NCBI GenBank assembly: GCA_947258985.1
Contig: CAMYKI010000040.1
Coordinates: 1-39,995 of the forward strand
Direction: 5' to 3'
DNA: 39,995 bases
DNA from: an uncultured Acidimicrobiaceae bacterium
GTDB taxonomy: Bacteria; Actinomycetota; Acidimicrobiia; Spongiisociales; UBA5794
In this document: positions 25,743-39,307 of the stretch, piece after piece
How the letters are laid out: each line of letters starts with the position of its first letter
How positions within the stretch are numbered: position 1 is the stretch's first letter
The notes under the pieces: model-generated
The model's database searches: none
Told to the model about the DNA's origin: nothing
Seen by the model: only the letters and a program-made list of their open reading frames with translations
Position numbers and translations under genes: made by a program

Positions 25743-27017
25743 CTATTGAGTATCCCGTCTCGTGAGATCGTCGTAGGTCTCTCTGCGGACGACAAGGCGA
25801 GCTTCGCCATCGGCAACGAACACGACAGGCGGGCGAAGCACCATGTTGTAGTTGGAGCCCATCGAGTGACCGTATGCACCTGTTACCGGGGTGCACAGAA
25901 TATCCCCCACCCGGGTGTCGCCAGGGATGGCCGCCTCACCGACAATGACATCGCCTGCTTCGCAGTGCTTGCCGACGATGCGGACCACGCGGTCCCGATC
26001 GGCGCTAACGGCTCGCGGGAGGAAGGCCTCATAGCCGCTGCCATAGAGCACGGGGCGAGGGTTATCGCTCATGCCGCCGTCCACGGCGACGTACGTCCTG
26101 ATCGCATCGATCGGCTTGATCGTCCCCACCGTGTACAGCGTTATGGCAGCACCGGCAACGATGGCACGGCCGGGCTCGGCAAGAATCTTGGCTTCGATCC
26201 CCTGACTCCGACACGCCCCCTTGATCGTTTCTGCCCACTCGGTGATCGTCGGAGCCGTCTCCCCGGTCACGTAGGCCACCCCGAGGCCGCCACCCACAGA
26301 GATCTCTTCAAGGGAGTGTTCGGCCAGGAAGGGTGCGAGCACTTCGATTGCTCTGCGAAACGATTCGACGGCGAACACCTGACTGCCGATGTGGGCGTGC
26401 ACACCGACCAATGACATCGTCGGGGAGGTGCGGGCCCTCGCCATTGCAGCAGCGGCGTCTCCGCTCGAAATACCAAATCCGAATTTGGAATCAGTCACGC
26501 CGGTCTGGAGATACTCGTGGGTGTGCGCCTCCACTCCCGGGTTCACCCTGATCAGGATCCTGGGAACCGCGTCGGTCTGTGCAGCAAGCGCTTCGATCCT
26601 GTCGAGTTCGTCGAATGAGTCGACAACGATTCGACCCACATCGGCCGTGAGCGCGATACGTAGCTCATCCTCCGACTTGTTGTTGCCATGCATGATCAGC
26701 CGGTCCGCGGGCACCCCGGCCGACTGAGCGACATGGAGCTCTCCGCCCGTGGCCACATCGAGATGCAACCCTTCCTCCCACGCCAGGCGAGCCATCGCTT
26801 GGGACAGGAAAGCCTTGGTGGCGTAGGCGACTCCATCGCCGAACGCGGCCACCGCCTCTCGACACCGCGCTCGCAGATGCGCTTCGTCATACACAAACAG
26901 CGGCGTTCCGAACTCCTCGGCAAGTTCGATCACGTCGCGGCCGCCTATGTGAAGCCGACCCCGAACCGTCTGGGATGTGTCCGGGAGCAGGTGAGCGGGT
27001 ATCGGACCGAACGTCAC
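25743..27017 (-). CDS. lysA: Diaminopimelate decarboxylase
   Basis: PLP enzyme for the last step of lysine synthesis. It has 424 residues with a fold-type III barrel: PLP Lys68 in 'VAYATKAFLSQA', the glycine loop 'EISVGGGLGVAY', 'ILAEPGRAIVAGA' and C-terminal 'CTPVTGAYGHSMGSNYNM' contributing the active site across the dimer. GTG 27017 overlaps the argS stop as GTGA. The argS-lysA pair followed by threonine genes is a classical actinobacterial arrangement. Confidence 0.96.
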   Translation of the reverse strand: MTFGPIPAHLLPDTSQTVRGRLHIGGRDVIELAEEFGTPLFVYDEAHLRARCREAVAAFGDGVAYATKAFLSQAMARLAWEEGLHLDVATGGELHVAQSAGVPADRLIMHGNNKSEDELRIALTADVGRIVVDSFDELDRIEALAAQTDAVPRILIRVNPGVEAHTHEYLQTGVTDSKFGFGISSGDAAAAMARARTSPTMSLVGVHAHIGSQVFAVESFRRAIEVLAPFLAEHSLEEISVGGGLGVAYVTGETAPTITEWAETIKGACRSQGIEAKILAEPGRAIVAGAAITLYTVGTIKPIDAIRTYVAVDGGMSDNPRPVLYGSGYEAFLPRAVSADRDRVVRIVGKHCEAGDVIVGEAAIPGDTRVGDILCTPVTGAYGHSMGSNYNMVLRPPVVFVADGEARLVVRRETYDDLTRRDTQ

Positions 27018-34086: not shown

Positions 34087-34096
34087 AACTATAGTT
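34087..34096. promoter_or_regulatory. Palindrome between mrp and the SufR-like gene
   Basis: AACTATAGTT is a perfect 10-base palindrome in the short divergent region between the mrp start (34054) and the regulator start (34140). It is well placed to act as a shared operator or as part of overlapping -10 regions. Confidence 0.4.
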
Positions 34097-34139
34097 GTGC
34101 CCGGAACGTTGGATTTCTCGCCCACATCGGGAGCCGAAC

Positions 34140-34835
34140 TTGGACGCAGCACATCTCGACGAACAACTGGGAGATCTGGCCGCCACTCTCGGAGACGCGA
34201 CCCGGCGAGGCATCTACATCACGGTTCGAGAGTCGGTCGAGCCGGTCACGGCCGGTCAGATTGCCGAACTCTTCGAGATCCACACCAACGTCGCCCGCCA
34301 CCACCTGGATCGTCTCGTAACCGACGGTTATCTCCAGGTGACCCGCCGCCGCCGGGCGGAACGCAGCGGTCCCGGTGCCGGTAGGCCCGCTAAACACTAC
34401 GAGACCACGGCGAAAGAGATCTCCGTCCAGTTCCCGGCGCGCCGCTATGACCTGCTTGCGGAGCTCCTGGCGAGGGTCGTTGAGCGGGTTGCCCCGGACT
34501 CCGCGGCGGAGATTGCTGAAGAGATCGGGCGAGAATACGGGAGAGAACTCGCTGCTGAGGTTGGGCTCTCCAGGGACGAGGGTTTCGACACGGCAGTCAC
34601 CGCCGTTGCCAAGGTCTTGATGGGTGTCGGATTCGAAACGGAAGCGAACACGCAGGATCGGGTCATCGTCACGCGCTTCTGCCCCTTTGGGGAGACCGCC
34701 TCGAAGCATCCCGAGATCGTGTGCAAGCTCGATCAGGGAATGGTCGCCGGCTTGCTCGAATCGGCGAATGCCTCGAGTGTGCCCATCGTCAATCCGCACG
34801 CAGACCACGCCGACGACTGCGTCACCGAGGTTTAG
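34140..34835 (+). CDS. SufR-like winged-helix regulator with three C-terminal cysteines
   Basis: 231 residues from TTG 34140, which has GGGAG six bases upstream; a longer frame from TTG 34095 lacks a ribosome site and would start in the palindrome. The N-terminal winged helix includes 'LGDATRRGIYI', 'VTAGQIAELFEIHTNVARHHLDRLVTDGYLQV' and a basic wing 'RRRRAERSGPGAGRPAKHYE'. The C-terminal part has Cys181 ('RFCPFGE'), Cys195 ('HPEIVCKLDQGM') and Cys227 near the end, resembling the SufR/ArsR-like Fe-S sensors. By family knowledge such proteins repress Fe-S assembly genes when holding a cluster. Its divergent neighbour is mrp. No suf genes are in the window, so the target set is inferred. Confidence 0.8.
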   Translation: MDAAHLDEQLGDLAATLGDATRRGIYITVRESVEPVTAGQIAELFEIHTNVARHHLDRLVTDGYLQVTRRRRAERSGPGAGRPAKHYETTAKEISVQFPARRYDLLAELLARVVERVAPDSAAEIAEEIGREYGRELAAEVGLSRDEGFDTAVTAVAKVLMGVGFETEANTQDRVIVTRFCPFGETASKHPEIVCKLDQGMVAGLLESANASSVPIVNPHADHADDCVTEV

Positions 34836-34896: not shown

Positions 34897-36642
34897 TTGC
34901 ACAGCACGCCCCGACTTCATCGCGGATTGTTGATTTCAACAATCGCGGCCGCCGCCGGCGGTCTACTTCTTGCTGTGGTCGGCGCCCCGGGGATCGCCAC
35001 CGCAGCTATGAACATCCTTGTTGTGGCAGCGGCGGTAGGTTCTTGGTACACCAGACCAAGCACCGACGATCAGTCGGTCATGGTCGCTGAGGTCTCGCAT
35101 GAGTTGCGGACCCCGCTTACGGGCATTCTCGGAACACTCGAGCTGTTGACGGATTCCACTGTGCCGTTGGAGGAGTCCGAGGTAGACGAACTGCTGGTGG
35201 CCGCGCATGGCGATGCGAACCATCTGCTGCACGTCGTCGGCAACCTCCATGCCCGATCGCGCATCGAGCGGTCCATCCTCCATCCCGAGGCGGTCACCAC
35301 CGACCTGCGGGCGATTGTCGAGCGATCCGTTTCGCACTTCCCCACCGTGGCGCGGCGCTGCTACCTCAGCCCCGGCAACCAGGCCGCGGTCGTGGGCGAC
35401 CCGCAGCTGATCATGCAGGTGGTGACGAACCTGATCCAGAACATCGAGCGGTATGCCCCGGACGGGGCGGTGCATATCTCCTTCGCCGAGGAGGACGGCA
35501 ACCTCACCGTCAGTTTCACGGACTCCGGGCCCGGTGTCCCCTCCTACCGAGCGTCAGAGATCTTCACCGATGGTGGAAGCTCCGAGGGCCTCGGTCTGGG
35601 CCTCAGCCTCAGCCGGCAACTCGCACGCGCGATGGGCGGTGATCTCACCCTGGTGAATGCAGGCGACCCGGGCGCAACGCTTCAACTCCGTGTGCCGGCG
35701 TCGAACGAGACCCTGCCATCCGCCGACGCCGGCGACGTCTTGCAGGACGCAACCACAATGGCCTTCTCCCCTCGCTCGCGACTACTCATCGACCTGGCTG
35801 CGGCGCTGTCGGAGAGAACGCTCGACAATGTTGTTGGCGGCATCCAGAAGCTGTATTCCGAATTGGTCGGCGCTACGGGCACTCTGCTGCTCGTCGCTCG
35901 CGCCGACGGATCGTTCGTCAGCGCCGGGCCATACGGCGCGGGGCGGACGGTGCCGGCTTCGGACTCGTCGCGGCTGGCCGGCGTCGTCACTGGAAGAGCA
36001 GCCATTCGAGTGCTGGACACCGACGACCTCGACTGGGCTGCAGATGGCATCCTCGGCGGGACCGCTGCAATGCTGCTCCCCGTTCACGACGGGGAAGTTG
36101 TCGCCGGCGTGCTCGCCGTTGGCTGGAAGTCCCCGGAAGCGCTGCCGACCGGTGCCGCCGCCAGAGTCACGACCGCCCTGGCCGATCTAACGGCGCCGGC
36201 GATCGCAAGGGCCTCGCTATCCCAAGATGTGATGTTCGAACGACGGTTGCGCTCGTCCGTTATGAACGAGTTGCCGATCGCAGTCTCGATCTTTGCCGGG
36301 GACCCCCCGGAGGTGATCGACATGAACCGCAAAGAGCGGGAGATGCTGAATCTCGACGACGAACACGGCCGTCCCCGCGACCTCGCGACAAGCCAGGCGC
36401 AGTTTGCGGTTCGGTTCGCCGACGGCACACCGCTGACCGTCGACAATGCGCCGGTCACTACAGCAATCAGGACCGGAAAGGCCACCGGTCCTTTCATGTT
36501 GAGCGTGCGGCGCGCCGACGGCAGCCACATCCACACGCGCACCTACTGCGCCCCGTTCTTCGACGACGACGGCGCGGTTGCGGGTGCCGTTGTCACTTCC
36601 GAACCGCTCGATATCTCAGTCGCCCCCCACTCCAGCGACTAG
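34897..36642 (+). CDS. Orphan histidine kinase with C-terminal GAF- and PAS-like domains
   Basis: 581 residues. Two membrane helices (about 10-30 and 34-50) are followed directly by the phosphoacceptor helix (His68 in 'AEVSHELRTPLTGILG') and the ATPase domain (N box 'NLIQNIERYAPDG', G1 'TDSGPGVPS', G2 'GLGLGLSLSRQLARAMGG'). Behind this core are a GAF-like domain (about 295-450) and a PAS-like domain (about 455-570, 'NELPIAVSIFAG...VIDMN'). Sensor domains normally precede the kinase core, so the order is unusual. No response regulator lies nearby. The start TTG 34897 has TGAGG four bases upstream. A 7-bp inverted repeat (34845-34851 and 34862-34868) lies before it. Confidence 0.85.
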   Translation: MHSTPRLHRGLLISTIAAAAGGLLLAVVGAPGIATAAMNILVVAAAVGSWYTRPSTDDQSVMVAEVSHELRTPLTGILGTLELLTDSTVPLEESEVDELLVAAHGDANHLLHVVGNLHARSRIERSILHPEAVTTDLRAIVERSVSHFPTVARRCYLSPGNQAAVVGDPQLIMQVVTNLIQNIERYAPDGAVHISFAEEDGNLTVSFTDSGPGVPSYRASEIFTDGGSSEGLGLGLSLSRQLARAMGGDLTLVNAGDPGATLQLRVPASNETLPSADAGDVLQDATTMAFSPRSRLLIDLAAALSERTLDNVVGGIQKLYSELVGATGTLLLVARADGSFVSAGPYGAGRTVPASDSSRLAGVVTGRAAIRVLDTDDLDWAADGILGGTAAMLLPVHDGEVVAGVLAVGWKSPEALPTGAAARVTTALADLTAPAIARASLSQDVMFERRLRSSVMNELPIAVSIFAGDPPEVIDMNRKEREMLNLDDEHGRPRDLATSQAQFAVRFADGTPLTVDNAPVTTAIRTGKATGPFMLSVRRADGSHIHTRTYCAPFFDDDGAVAGAVVTSEPLDISVAPHSSD

Positions 36643-36694: not shown

Positions 36695-37246
36695 ATGGCC
36701 TGGATTGACACGATCGCAGTCGACCGTTGGGACGGCGATCTGGCTGCCATCAGGACTTCGGTTGCCGACAGTGCGACTGGTCGGGTTGACCACATCATGG
36801 CAATCCACTCCTTGAACCCTCGGGCTATGGCCGCCCACGATGCGCTGTACCGGTCCGCCATGGCCGGGACTCGATCCCTGCGGAAGGTGGAACGGGAACT
36901 GATTGCCTATGTGGTCTCGTCGGCGAACGATTGTCACTACTGACTGACCCACCATCGGCGCGGTCTGCGCCGGCTGCTGCAGGATGATGCCCTGCTGGGT
37001 CGCATTGACGAGGACTGGCGGACGGCAGATCTGGGAGGCCGCCGTGTCGCCATGCTCGAGTATGCAACCAAACTCACCCTCAACCCTGGTGACATGAACC
37101 GAGACGACGTGGCGGCATTGCGTGACGCCGGCTTCGATGACCGTGACATCCTCGATATCTGTGAGGTGGTCGCCTACTACGCCTACGTCAACCGGATCGC
37201 AGATGGTCTCGGAGTCACTGTCGAGGAATGGTTCGTGGATGAGTGA
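36695..37246 (+). CDS. AhpD-like peroxidase-related selenoprotein (in-frame TGA at codon 83)
   Basis: 183 residues if TGA 36941-36943 is read as selenocysteine. The frame before and after the TGA is the same and both halves match the peroxidase-related AhpD-fold family (TIGR01926 type): 'LRKVERELIAYVVSSANDCHY', then TGA, then 'LTHHRRGLRRLL', and the usual end 'VVAYYAYVNRIADGLGV'. In AhpD the catalytic set is Glu, CxxC and a His four residues after the second Cys. Here Glu68, Cys80, codon 83 = TGA and His87 keep exactly that spacing, giving CxxU. The protein would be a thiol/selenol peroxidase or reductase. AAGGAT about five bases before ATG 36695 sets the start. The end overlaps the dipeptidase start. 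A SECIS-like hairpin follows the TGA. The alternative is a recent Cys-to-stop mutation. Confidence 0.8.
36956..36972 (+). promoter_or_regulatory. SECIS-like hairpin after the recoded TGA
   Basis: Stem CGGCGC/GCGCCG (36956-36961 and 36967-36972) closes the loop GGTCT; the stem begins 12 bases after the TGA. Bacterial SECIS elements lie within the coding region immediately after the UGA and present a GU-containing apical loop to SelB. The E. coli fdhF element, as I recall it, has the loop AGGTCT with GGT CTG as codons 7 and 8 after TGA, the same as here. No bulged U is obvious in the stem. Confidence 0.65.
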
Positions 37247-38360
37247 CCCGTACCTGGCGCAGGCACGGGCGATCCACCAGGACCTACCGGTGATCGATGG
37301 CCACAACGACCTGCCCTGGGCGATTCGCACCAGAGCGGCTGGGTCTCTGACGGCGGCAGATCCTGCGGGCCACCTCGCCGGATACCACACGGACATTCCC
37401 CGTCTGATCGAAGGTGGGGTCGGCGCTCAGTTCTGGTCGGTGTACGTGCCCGCATCGTCGAACAATCCATTCCAGGAGACGGTGCGCCAAATCGATCTCG
37501 TTGAGCGAATGGTTGCAGCCAATCCCGATCGGCTCGCTCTCGCCACGACGGCGAGCGAAATCGCCGGGGCTCGCAATCGGGGACGGGTCGCCTGCTTGCT
37601 CGGTGCCGAGGGTGGTCACAGTATCGAGGAGTCGTTCGACAATCTGCGCACCCTCCACGAGCGCGGCGTGCGCTACATGACCCTGACCCACGTTGACACG
37701 CTGACCTGGGCAGACTCCGCTACCGACGAGCCGCGTCACGCAGGTCTCACTGAATTTGGACGCGAGGTCGTTCGGGAGATGAACCGCATCGGAATGATGG
37801 TCGATATCTCCCATGTGTCGCCGGACACAATGCGGGCTGCGCTCGACTCAACCCGGGCTCCGCTGATCGCATCCCATTCGAGCGCCTATGCGCTGGCGGC
37901 CCATCCTCGCAACATCCCCGACGATGTCATCGCCGGTGTTGCCGACAACGGAGGGCTGATCATGGTCAATTTCTATCCCCCGTTCATCGTGCCCGAACTC
38001 GTTGAAAGGTCGATCGGTCTCTACGACGAGGCTCGCCGGTTGCTCGATGAGACCGGCGATGAGCAGGCCGTCGAGGACGCAATGGCTGCACGCTGGGAGG
38101 GCGTGGATACCCGGGGCAGCGTCGCCACCGTTGCCGATCACATCGAGCACATTGCACGTTTTGCCGGGGTCGAACACGTCGGCTTAGGCAGTGACTTCGA
38201 CGGTGTCGATCTTTTGCCCGCGGGCCTGGAGGATGTTTCGTGCTACCCCAACATCACCGCGGAGCTGTTGCGGCGCGGCTGGGGAGAAATCGAGATCCGC
38301 AAGGTTCTCGGCGAGAACATGCTCCGGGTGATGGGCGCCGTCGAGGCTATTGCCGGGTGA
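37239..38360 (+). CDS. Membrane-dipeptidase-family (M19) zinc dipeptidase
   Basis: 373 residues from ATG 37239. The binuclear zinc ligands and spacing of the renal dipeptidase family are present: His22 and Asp24 in 'VIDGHNDLPW', bridging Glu124 in 'LLGAEGGHSIE', His192 in 'DISHVSPDT', His213 in 'IASHSSAYAL', and the late Asp in 'GLGSDFDGV'. Family members hydrolyse dipeptides, often with D-residues or dehydropeptides. No signal peptide is seen, so it is probably cytosolic. ATG 37239 lies within the last eight bases of the selenoprotein gene (ATGAGTGA), implying translational coupling. Confidence 0.93.
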   Translation: MSDPYLAQARAIHQDLPVIDGHNDLPWAIRTRAAGSLTAADPAGHLAGYHTDIPRLIEGGVGAQFWSVYVPASSNNPFQETVRQIDLVERMVAANPDRLALATTASEIAGARNRGRVACLLGAEGGHSIEESFDNLRTLHERGVRYMTLTHVDTLTWADSATDEPRHAGLTEFGREVVREMNRIGMMVDISHVSPDTMRAALDSTRAPLIASHSSAYALAAHPRNIPDDVIAGVADNGGLIMVNFYPPFIVPELVERSIGLYDEARRLLDETGDEQAVEDAMAARWEGVDTRGSVATVADHIEHIARFAGVEHVGLGSDFDGVDLLPAGLEDVSCYPNITAELLRRGWGEIEIRKVLGENMLRVMGAVEAIAG

Positions 38361-38383: not shown

Positions 38384-39307
38384 ATGCCCCTGATCTCCGA
38401 ACCGTTCGCCGACGAGAATCTCGACGAGATCGTTCAGTTCGTGCGGGATGCCAACCCGTTCAGTCAGGCCACCTGGGGTTGGGACACCGGCAGGTTTGTC
38501 GACTGGCGGTGGGGTGGGAATACTGTGCGCGAGGCGGCCGACCCGGGATGGTGCTCGAGGGCCGCCCGGGTGTTTCGTGACGACGGTGCGATCCAGGCTC
38601 TGGCAGTTCGAGAATACGGTGATGATGCGACCTGCATCATCACCCCGGATGAGGACCCCGATACGTTTCGTCATGTCCTCGATTGGCTGACCACCGACGA
38701 GAAGTCTGGCGAGGCCGGTCTTGTGTTCGAGATCTCCGACCAGGCGGAATGGCTGCGGGAGCTCCTTGCAGATGCCGGGCTCTCGGAGAAACCCGCAACG
38801 GGCCACGAATGGGAGTACGACCTCTCTCGGGTCCCCGATGAATCCCGCGTGCCCGATGGCTTCACCATCGAGGGGCTCGGCACCAACCGAGCCGATGACC
38901 ATGCCGGCATCGCGGCATGCATCGGAGCCGCCTTTGACATCGATAGGGACCTGACAGTCACGCTGCGGAGCATTGAGGGCAACCCGCTCTTTCGACCGGA
39001 GTTGAGCGTCTTCGCCCGCAGCCCGCAAGGCCTTGTGGCGGCCTACTGCCGCGGAACGGTTGACCCGGTAAACGGCGTGTGCGGCATCGATCCGATCTGC
39101 ACCCACCCCGACTTTCAGAAACTCGGTTTGGGCAGGGCCGTCGTTGAGGAATGCTTCCGACGGCAGCGAGCTCTCGGTGGCCGCTTCAGCTACATCGGAT
39201 CGGCACCTGAGCCGGCTGCCGGTACCTTCCTTTATCGATCTCTCGGCCCCAACGACGTCAGCACCTACTGCGAGTGGAGAATCGCCGACGTCACCCCACT
39301 CGGCTGA
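38384..39307 (+). CDS. GNAT-family N-acetyltransferase (two-domain)
   Basis: 307 residues, long enough for two GNAT folds. The C-terminal one has the acetyl-CoA motif 'ICTHPDFQKLGLGRAVVEECFRRQRALGG' (about 243-270), with the R/Q-x-x-G-x-G/A-type loop read as 'QKLGLG'. The N-terminal half (1-145) lacks an obvious acetyl-CoA loop and may be a degenerate copy. The acceptor is unknown. It starts 24 bases after the dipeptidase gene and may be in the same transcript. Confidence 0.8.
   Translation: MPLISEPFADENLDEIVQFVRDANPFSQATWGWDTGRFVDWRWGGNTVREAADPGWCSRAARVFRDDGAIQALAVREYGDDATCIITPDEDPDTFRHVLDWLTTDEKSGEAGLVFEISDQAEWLRELLADAGLSEKPATGHEWEYDLSRVPDESRVPDGFTIEGLGTNRADDHAGIAACIGAAFDIDRDLTVTLRSIEGNPLFRPELSVFARSPQGLVAAYCRGTVDPVNGVCGIDPICTHPDFQKLGLGRAVVEECFRRQRALGGRFSYIGSAPEPAAGTFLYRSLGPNDVSTYCEWRIADVTPLG

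What the first reader, a model, noticed from the sequence alone, without database searches (positions are those of the whole stretch)
36695..37246. AhpD-like selenoprotein hidden by an in-frame TGA at the catalytic cysteine
Seen: one frame runs 36695-37246 with a single stop, TGA, at codon 83. That codon falls exactly where the second Cys of the AhpD CxxC belongs (Cys80-H-Y-TGA), with Glu68 and His87 at the family spacing and a full family C-terminus after it. A random nonsense mutation would have to hit the one residue that selenium most plausibly replaces, and leave 100 codons of good sequence and the overlap with the next gene untouched. Inference: a CxxU thiol/selenol peroxidase in an actinobacterium, which ordinary gene calling would split into a truncated and an orphan fragment. 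AhpD-like selenoproteins are known in other bacteria; this gene context with a dipeptidase is not one I recognise.
Basis: partly seen in the sequence, partly recalled or inferred. Interest (0 to 1): 0.93.

Follow-up and report, generated by a model that had tools for sequence, protein, structure and literature searches.

The report
Selenium enzyme gene split by UGA
In this probably actinobacterial genome one gene has a UGA codon exactly where relatives carry a cysteine, followed by a conserved RNA hairpin, so it very likely encodes a selenocysteine-containing AhpD-like redox enzyme of an already known selenoprotein family, which gene calling often cuts short, although two of the genome's own decoding genes are incomplete in the assembly.

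Summary
ORF 36695-37246 has one internal TGA (36941-36943) at codon 83, the second position of CxxC, with Glu68, Cys80 and His87 in place. Of 47 orthologous loci read, 46 have TGA there and one TTA. Three DNA-level signs exclude random nonsense: a 6-bp hairpin starts 12 nt after the UGA; codons 89-91 at its apex are CGC-GGT-CTG in 46 of 47 loci while other degenerate codons vary; the codon-88/92 wobble bases covary as base pairs. The element meets the published bacterial SECIS model. selA and selD are present, and selD itself has an in-frame UGA. The family (TIGR01926, CxxU AhpD-like selenoprotein) has been in print since 2005: a new member of a known kind. Apparently undescribed: its spread in this class (103 of 395 genomes, close and distant forms together). 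Unresolved: in this assembly selB has a stop and a 22-base deletion in its GTPase start, and selC is only a 62-base 3' remnant. So either the assembly is faulty or the strain is losing selenocysteine decoding. Peroxidase activity is inferred.

The parts
36695..37246 (+). AhpD-like (TIGR01926/CMD) selenoprotein gene, 183 residues with predicted Sec at 83
   Evidence: AlphaFold model of the read-through protein pLDDT 95.4
36941..36943 (+). in-frame UGA, predicted selenocysteine codon 83 (second position of the CxxC of Cys homologues)
   Evidence: TGA in 46 of 47 orthologous loci; Cys nearly invariant there in the 24 aligned proteins
36932..36934 (+). Cys80 codon (TGT), partner of residue 83
   Evidence: invariant in 25 aligned sequences
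36896..36898 (+). Glu68 codon, conserved acidic residue
   Evidence: invariant in 25 aligned sequences
36953..36955 (+). His87 codon, conserved histidine
   Evidence: invariant in 25 aligned sequences
36956..36972 (+). SECIS-like hairpin: 6-bp stem, 5-nt loop GGUCU; apical loop begins 18 nt after the UGA
   Evidence: -10.7 kcal/mol; covariation at the wobble pair; loop codons nearly invariant; within the published bSECIS limits
37239..38360 (+). M19 (renal-type) dipeptidase, overlaps the end of the selenoprotein gene by 8 nt
   Evidence: Pfam PF01244 1.1e-112; neighbour in 12 of 28 other same-family loci
34095..34835 (+). helix-turn-helix regulator, upstream
   Evidence: Pfam HTH_20 2e-7; upstream in 17 of 28 other same-family loci
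34897..36642 (+). histidine kinase between regulator and selenoprotein gene; among the loci compared seen only in the window's genus
   Evidence: Pfam HisKA and HATPase_c; upstream in L027-L029
32957..34054 (-). Mrp-type P-loop ATPase, divergent neighbour (name recalled from the sequence, no family search made)
   Evidence: tblastn neighbour in same-family loci
38384..39307 (+). GNAT acetyltransferase, downstream
   Evidence: Pfam PF00583 5.1e-5

Best explanation
The gene at 36695-37246 very likely encodes a selenoprotein: the UGA at codon 83 sits where homologues have the second cysteine of CxxC, and a conserved hairpin right after it would act as a bacterial SECIS element that lets SelB deliver selenocysteyl-tRNA. 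The product is predicted to be an all-helical AhpD-like (TIGR01926) redox enzyme with a Cys80-x-x-Sec83 pair. By analogy with AhpD (recalled), Sec83 would be the attacking selenolate, helped by Glu68 and His87. It would reduce a hydroperoxide or similar oxidant and then form a selenenylsulfide with Cys80 that an unknown dithiol donor reduces. Shown: the UGA, the hairpin, its covariation and codon constraint, the family match, the Cys/Sec exchange, and recurring neighbours within one family. Inferred: Sec insertion, peroxidase chemistry and co-expression with the M19 dipeptidase. Not settled: whether this particular strain still decodes UGA, since selB and selC are incomplete in its assembly.
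For: TGA in 46 of 47 orthologous loci, TTA in 1. Class search: 103 of 395 genomes match at E<=1e-30 and every listed match but one (G040) carries an in-frame TGA. Among 29 codon columns with a conserved 4- or 6-fold amino acid, the three with the lowest codon entropy are the adjacent loop codons 89, 91 and 90 (0, 0, 0.15 bit; next 1.18; median 1.51). Hairpin pairs form in 98.1% of 210 cells against 88.5% in shuffles, 0 of 500 as high; covariation score also 0 of 500; slid controls fall to 18-61%. bSECIS limits (loop 3-9 nt, stem 4-16 bp, G in the first two loop positions, 16-37 nt from the UGA, MFE <= -7.5): here 5 nt, 6 bp, GG, 18 nt, -10.7. selA, selD (itself with UGA) and a selB locus in the genome. 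Of the 120 listed homologues 27 have Cys here and 82 are C-terminal fragments starting after it. Cys forms nest in the UGA clade. Model pLDDT 95.4; best structural matches are the TIGR01926-type proteins, TM up to 0.88.
Against: No intact selC in the assembly. The selB locus seen has a TAG and a 22-base deletion in its GTPase start. The 53-nt stretch from the UGA on is not more stable than its shuffles (z 0.31, 129 of 200 at least as stable). Rfam gave no SECIS match. Covariation rests mostly on one pair, and the number of pairs with changes on both sides is reached in 67 of 500 shuffles. UGA is also an ordinary stop in this genome (the M19 and GNAT genes, and this gene itself, end in TGA). 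At looser thresholds the family search also lists distant relatives without a TGA. No enzymatic or 75Se evidence.
Confidence: 0.86

Rival explanations
1. The gene is a former selenoprotein gene in a strain that has just lost selenocysteine decoding: selB is truly broken and selC truly interrupted, so today the UGA ends an 82-residue stub. (This is compatible with the gene having been a selenoprotein gene; it differs only for this strain.)
For: selB has a TAG and, 6 bases on, a 22-base deletion inside the conserved GTPase start, in mid-contig, whereas three congeners are intact over this stretch. selC is only a 3' 62-nt remnant fused to other DNA, and a 5' pattern is not found.
Against: The genome is a 150-contig draft, 92.9% complete. 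selC abuts contig ends in several relatives, so its absence can come from an assembly break. A 3' tRNA remnant is what an insertion at a tRNA gene leaves beside an intact copy (recalled). The UGA, hairpin and downstream frame of this gene are intact, and so is the UGA-containing selD.
Confidence: 0.3
2. Random nonsense mutation or sequencing error in an ordinary Cys-type gene.
For: A single stop in one draft genome, taken alone, could be this.
Against: The same TGA in 46 of 47 orthologous loci, with synonymous constraint and base-pair covariation behind it.
Confidence: 0.01
3. UGA is read as tryptophan (table 4-like) or the stop is suppressed without selenium.
For: 10 of the 120 listed homologues show W at this place.
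Against: Three genes of the window end in TGA. The W entries are best explained as table-4 translations of metagenome contigs (inference; their DNA was not seen). The hairpin and selA/selD point to Sec.
Confidence: 0.02

Closest known systems
AhpD-like CxxU selenoproteins (Sargasso Sea/GOS 'AhpD-like'; TIGR01926 in the 2026 catalogue)
   Same: CxxU motif, AhpD/CMD relationship, SECIS directly after the UGA (PMC1088965, PMC2398784 and PMC13188914, passages seen)
   Different: The word start 'actinobacteri' does not occur in the main text of those papers. Here the UGA form is in many genomes of one class, and in one family it has HTH regulator and M19 neighbours
TIGR01926-type Cys proteins with solved structures (PDB 3c1l, 2pfx, 6k40, 2oyo, 2prr)
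   Same: Sequence (3.6e-30 to 6.2e-18) and predicted fold (TM 0.78-0.88 in the first 16 rows)
   Different: Cys in place of Sec83 (seen in the three alignments printed)
Mycobacterium tuberculosis AhpD (1knc, 1gu9)
   Same: Cysteine pair with Glu and His at matching spacing (E118, C130, C133, H137 recalled; an H137F entry appears)
   Different: Weak structural match (TM about 0.5), other subfamily, no Sec
NF041238 AhpD_rel_CFYUT selenoprotein
   Same: Domain similarity, 4.3e-12
   Different: 46 bits, far below its cut-off of 175; not a member

Membership tests
Bacterial selenoprotein gene | in-frame UGA at a position of conserved Cys in homologues | tested here: met
Bacterial selenoprotein gene | bSECIS hairpin directly downstream within published limits | tested here: met
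Bacterial selenoprotein gene | selA, selB, selC, selD in the genome | tested here: inconclusive
   selA and selD met; selB damaged and selC only a remnant in this draft; congeners have SelA in 6 of 6 (two as pieces) and selC over the cut-off in 5 of 6
Bacterial selenoprotein gene | selenium in the full-length protein | not testable with these tools
   needs 75Se labelling or mass spectrometry
TIGR01926 peroxidase-related (AhpD-like) family | score above curated cut-off | tested here: met
   136.6 bits against 81.8
TIGR01926 peroxidase-related (AhpD-like) family | all-helical AhpD-like fold | tested here: met
   predicted model only
TIGR01926 peroxidase-related (AhpD-like) family | hydroperoxide reduction | not testable with these tools
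   no assay; family name only
NF041238 AhpD_rel_CFYUT | score above curated cut-off | tested here: not met
   46 bits against 175

The most novel reading that the evidence does not exclude
A bacterium caught in the act of losing selenocysteine: its UGA genes (this AhpD-like gene and selD) and their hairpins are still perfect, while selB has just been broken and selC interrupted by an insertion, in a class where nearly every relative of this gene found still carries UGA. A second lineage (G040) would show the next step, TGA changed to TTA with the hairpin still intact.
Probability: 0.28. Interest if true: 0.6.

Novelty: new member of a known kind. Interest (0 to 1): 0.42.

Why it matters
It shows an AhpD-like selenoenzyme gene conserved, UGA and hairpin included, across many genomes of one actinobacterial class, while most of its best matches in a large protein database are fragments that begin after the UGA. 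The hairpin leaves a trace in synonymous sites that can be read directly, a clean way to find and correct such genes. Intact UGA genes beside a damaged selB and a remnant of selC in one draft make loss of selenocysteine decoding directly testable.

Tried and rejected
Random nonsense, pseudogene and UGA=Trp were considered and rejected (see rivals). Folding energy of the 53-nt stretch was uninformative, and so was an Rfam scan. A model built from the hairpin region found only this gene in the own genome with E below 0.68, so it did not pick up the selD hairpin. A phylum search with a Cys form (P0007), meant to get DNA of Cys relatives as a control for the hairpin, returned 5 of 396 genomes, all with TGA, so that control is missing. 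A search for another assembly of the species through SelB gave at best 70% identity (best 120 of 4566 listed), so the selB damage could not be checked. The six named Acidimicrobiales/Acidimicrobiia loci L010-L015 show no match to the window's neighbours (L011 has almost no downstream flank), and the ORFs of five of them were read, so no function is drawn from context outside the family. The upstream regulator has no PDB match.

Full report
Observation. The frame 36695-37246 has one internal stop, TGA at 36941-36943, codon 83, three codons after Cys80 and four before His87; Glu68 is also in place. A ribosome-binding-like GAAAGG precedes the ATG. The read-through protein matches CMD (PF02627, 1.5e-12) and TIGR01926 'peroxidase-related enzyme' (7.7e-40, 136.6 bits against a cut-off of 81.8).

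Relatives at the DNA level. Genome searches that read through stops gave a match in 38 of 50 genomes of the family at E<=0.001. In 29 of the 50 the match is orthologue-grade (E<=1e-60); the other nine have only a partial or distant match, and distant rows without any TGA appear in that list. In the class 103 of 395 genomes match at E<=1e-30, and every listed match but one (G040) carries an in-frame TGA; this includes a distant group of about 34-51% identity. I read the DNA of 47 orthologous loci: 46 have TGA at codon 83, one (L036, G040) has TTA. They come from the window's family, other families of the class, two families outside the class (L113, L114), and six named Acidimicrobiales/Acidimicrobiia records (L010-L015). 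The window's organism is therefore most likely an acidimicrobiial actinobacterium (inference; the genome itself is unnamed).

The hairpin. Twelve bases after the UGA begins CGGCGC-GGUCU-GCGCCG (36956-36972), -10.7 kcal/mol. Among 29 codon columns whose 4- or 6-fold degenerate amino acid is conserved in at least 85% of loci, the three with the lowest codon entropy are exactly the adjacent loop codons: Arg89 CGC 47 of 47, Leu91 CTG 47 of 47, Gly90 GGT 46 of 47. The next column has 1.18 bits and the median is 1.51. The third bases of codons 88 and 92, free at the protein level, pair as GC 28, CG 11, GU 5, UA 2, AU 1. In the 35-locus alignment 98.1% of cells pair against 88.5% in shuffles (0 of 500 as high), and sliding the partner drops this to 18-61%. 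The weaker measures there are the number of pairs changed on both sides (2, reached in 67 of 500 shuffles) and of further pair types (5, reached in 13 of 500); related sequences and the dominance of one pair limit the test. The element satisfies the four limits of the published bSECIS model (passage of PMC13188914): loop 5 nt, stem 6 bp, GG first in the loop, 18 nt from the UGA, energy below -7.5. Against it, the wider 53-nt stretch is not unusually stable and Rfam has no match.

Machinery in the same genome (G000, 150 contigs, 92.9% complete). selA is intact (TIGR00474, 421 bits). selD scores 334 bits and carries its own in-frame TGA in GAG-U-ACK, followed by a stable hairpin whose predicted loop GUU lies 33 nt after that UGA. 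selB lies directly after selA but its start is damaged: the frame ATG...GHVDHGKSTLV runs into TAG, and 6 bases on 22 bases present in four relatives are missing, which shifts the frame; from there SelB is open to its end. It still scores just above the SelB cut-off (246 against 242 bits). Of selC only the 3' 62 bases are present (98% identical to a congener), fused to other DNA, with a further 23-base piece nearby; a 26-base 5' pattern was not found with up to 3 mismatches. Congeners: selC over the cut-off in 5 of 6, SelA in 6 of 6, two of them as pieces. In several relatives selC abuts a contig end (both copies in G012, G010:C37, G018:C2), so a missing selC can come from assembly breaks. The selB damage is in mid-contig and is not so easily excused. 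I could not decide between assembly fault and real loss: no second assembly of the species was found (best SelB 70% identical).

Cys/Sec exchange. Of the 120 listed of 364 database relatives, 82 start after the UGA (split calls), 27 have Cys, 10 Trp, 1 Leu at this place; fragments shorter than 101 residues could not appear. The Leu protein is 99.5% identical to G040's gene. The Trp entries look like table-4 translations (inference). A tree of 61 proteins puts 45 UGA rows, 3 Cys rows and the Leu row in one clade (99/94 support). The Cys rows P0006-P0008 sit inside it beside a UGA gene (100/99). The 10 other Cys rows, and the two distant UGA rows L016 and L046, fall outside. The label has thus changed at least once inside the clade; that UGA is the older state there is inference.

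Protein. AlphaFold gave mean pLDDT 95.4 for the read-through chain, including the part after the UGA except the last few residues. The closest solved structures are 2prr, 3c1l, 6k40, 2pfx and 2oyo, TM 0.78-0.88 in the first 16 rows; sequence matches to the same five run from 3.6e-30 to 6.2e-18. Glu68, Cys80, His86 and His87 are invariant in 25 aligned sequences. By analogy with M. tuberculosis AhpD (recalled), residue 83 is the attacking residue and Cys80 the resolving one. Substrate and reductant are unknown.

Context. In the family an HTH regulator lies upstream in 17 of 28 other loci and the M19 dipeptidase downstream in 12 of 28, limited by short flanks. The histidine kinase between regulator and enzyme is seen only in the window's genus (L027-L029). 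Outside the family, L010-L015, L102-L110, L113 and L114 show none of these neighbours and L111 only a weak GNAT match, so the dipeptidase link is local. The dipeptidase is a typical M19 enzyme (3id7, 1.4e-106).

What is known. CxxU AhpD-like selenoproteins were reported in 2005 (27 Sargasso Sea sequences) and 2008 (299 and 70 GOS sequences in two groups). A 2026 catalogue lists AhpD-like/TIGR01926/CxxU (passages of PMC1088965, PMC2398784 and PMC13188914). Searches for selenocysteine with Actinomarin, and for selenoprotein with Actinobacteria, SECIS and alkylhydroperoxidase, found no paper; selenoprotein with Acidimicrobi found two, by their listings on other subjects. So the family and mechanism are known; the spread in this class and the gene context seem undescribed within that library, by those searches.

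Noticed in passing
L053 (G000:C15), minus strand, upstream of 5569: selD of the same genome has an in-frame TGA in GAG-U-ACK with a stable hairpin (predicted loop GUU) 33 nt on: a second predicted selenoprotein gene.
   Followed up: partly
L052 6143-6290 (G000:C8): selB start is damaged in the assembly: TAG after GHVDHGKSTLV and a 22-base deletion relative to four relatives.
   Followed up: partly
G000:C41:27053-27114 and 26885-26907 (L007, L098): Two 3' pieces of tRNA-Sec fused to other DNA, like remnants of insertions into selC; the longer piece differs by one base beside the anticodon.
   Followed up: partly
L036 (G040): Orthologue with TTA (Leu) at the Sec codon but an intact hairpin; SelA not found in that 79% complete genome, selC found.
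   Followed up: partly
L046, L016 and the f12 rows: A second, distant AhpD-like group (about 34-51% identity), also with an in-frame TGA, in small genomes of about 1 Mb among others.
   Followed up: no
window 34897-36642: Histidine kinase between the HTH regulator and the selenoprotein gene; among the loci compared seen only in the window's genus.
   Followed up: partly
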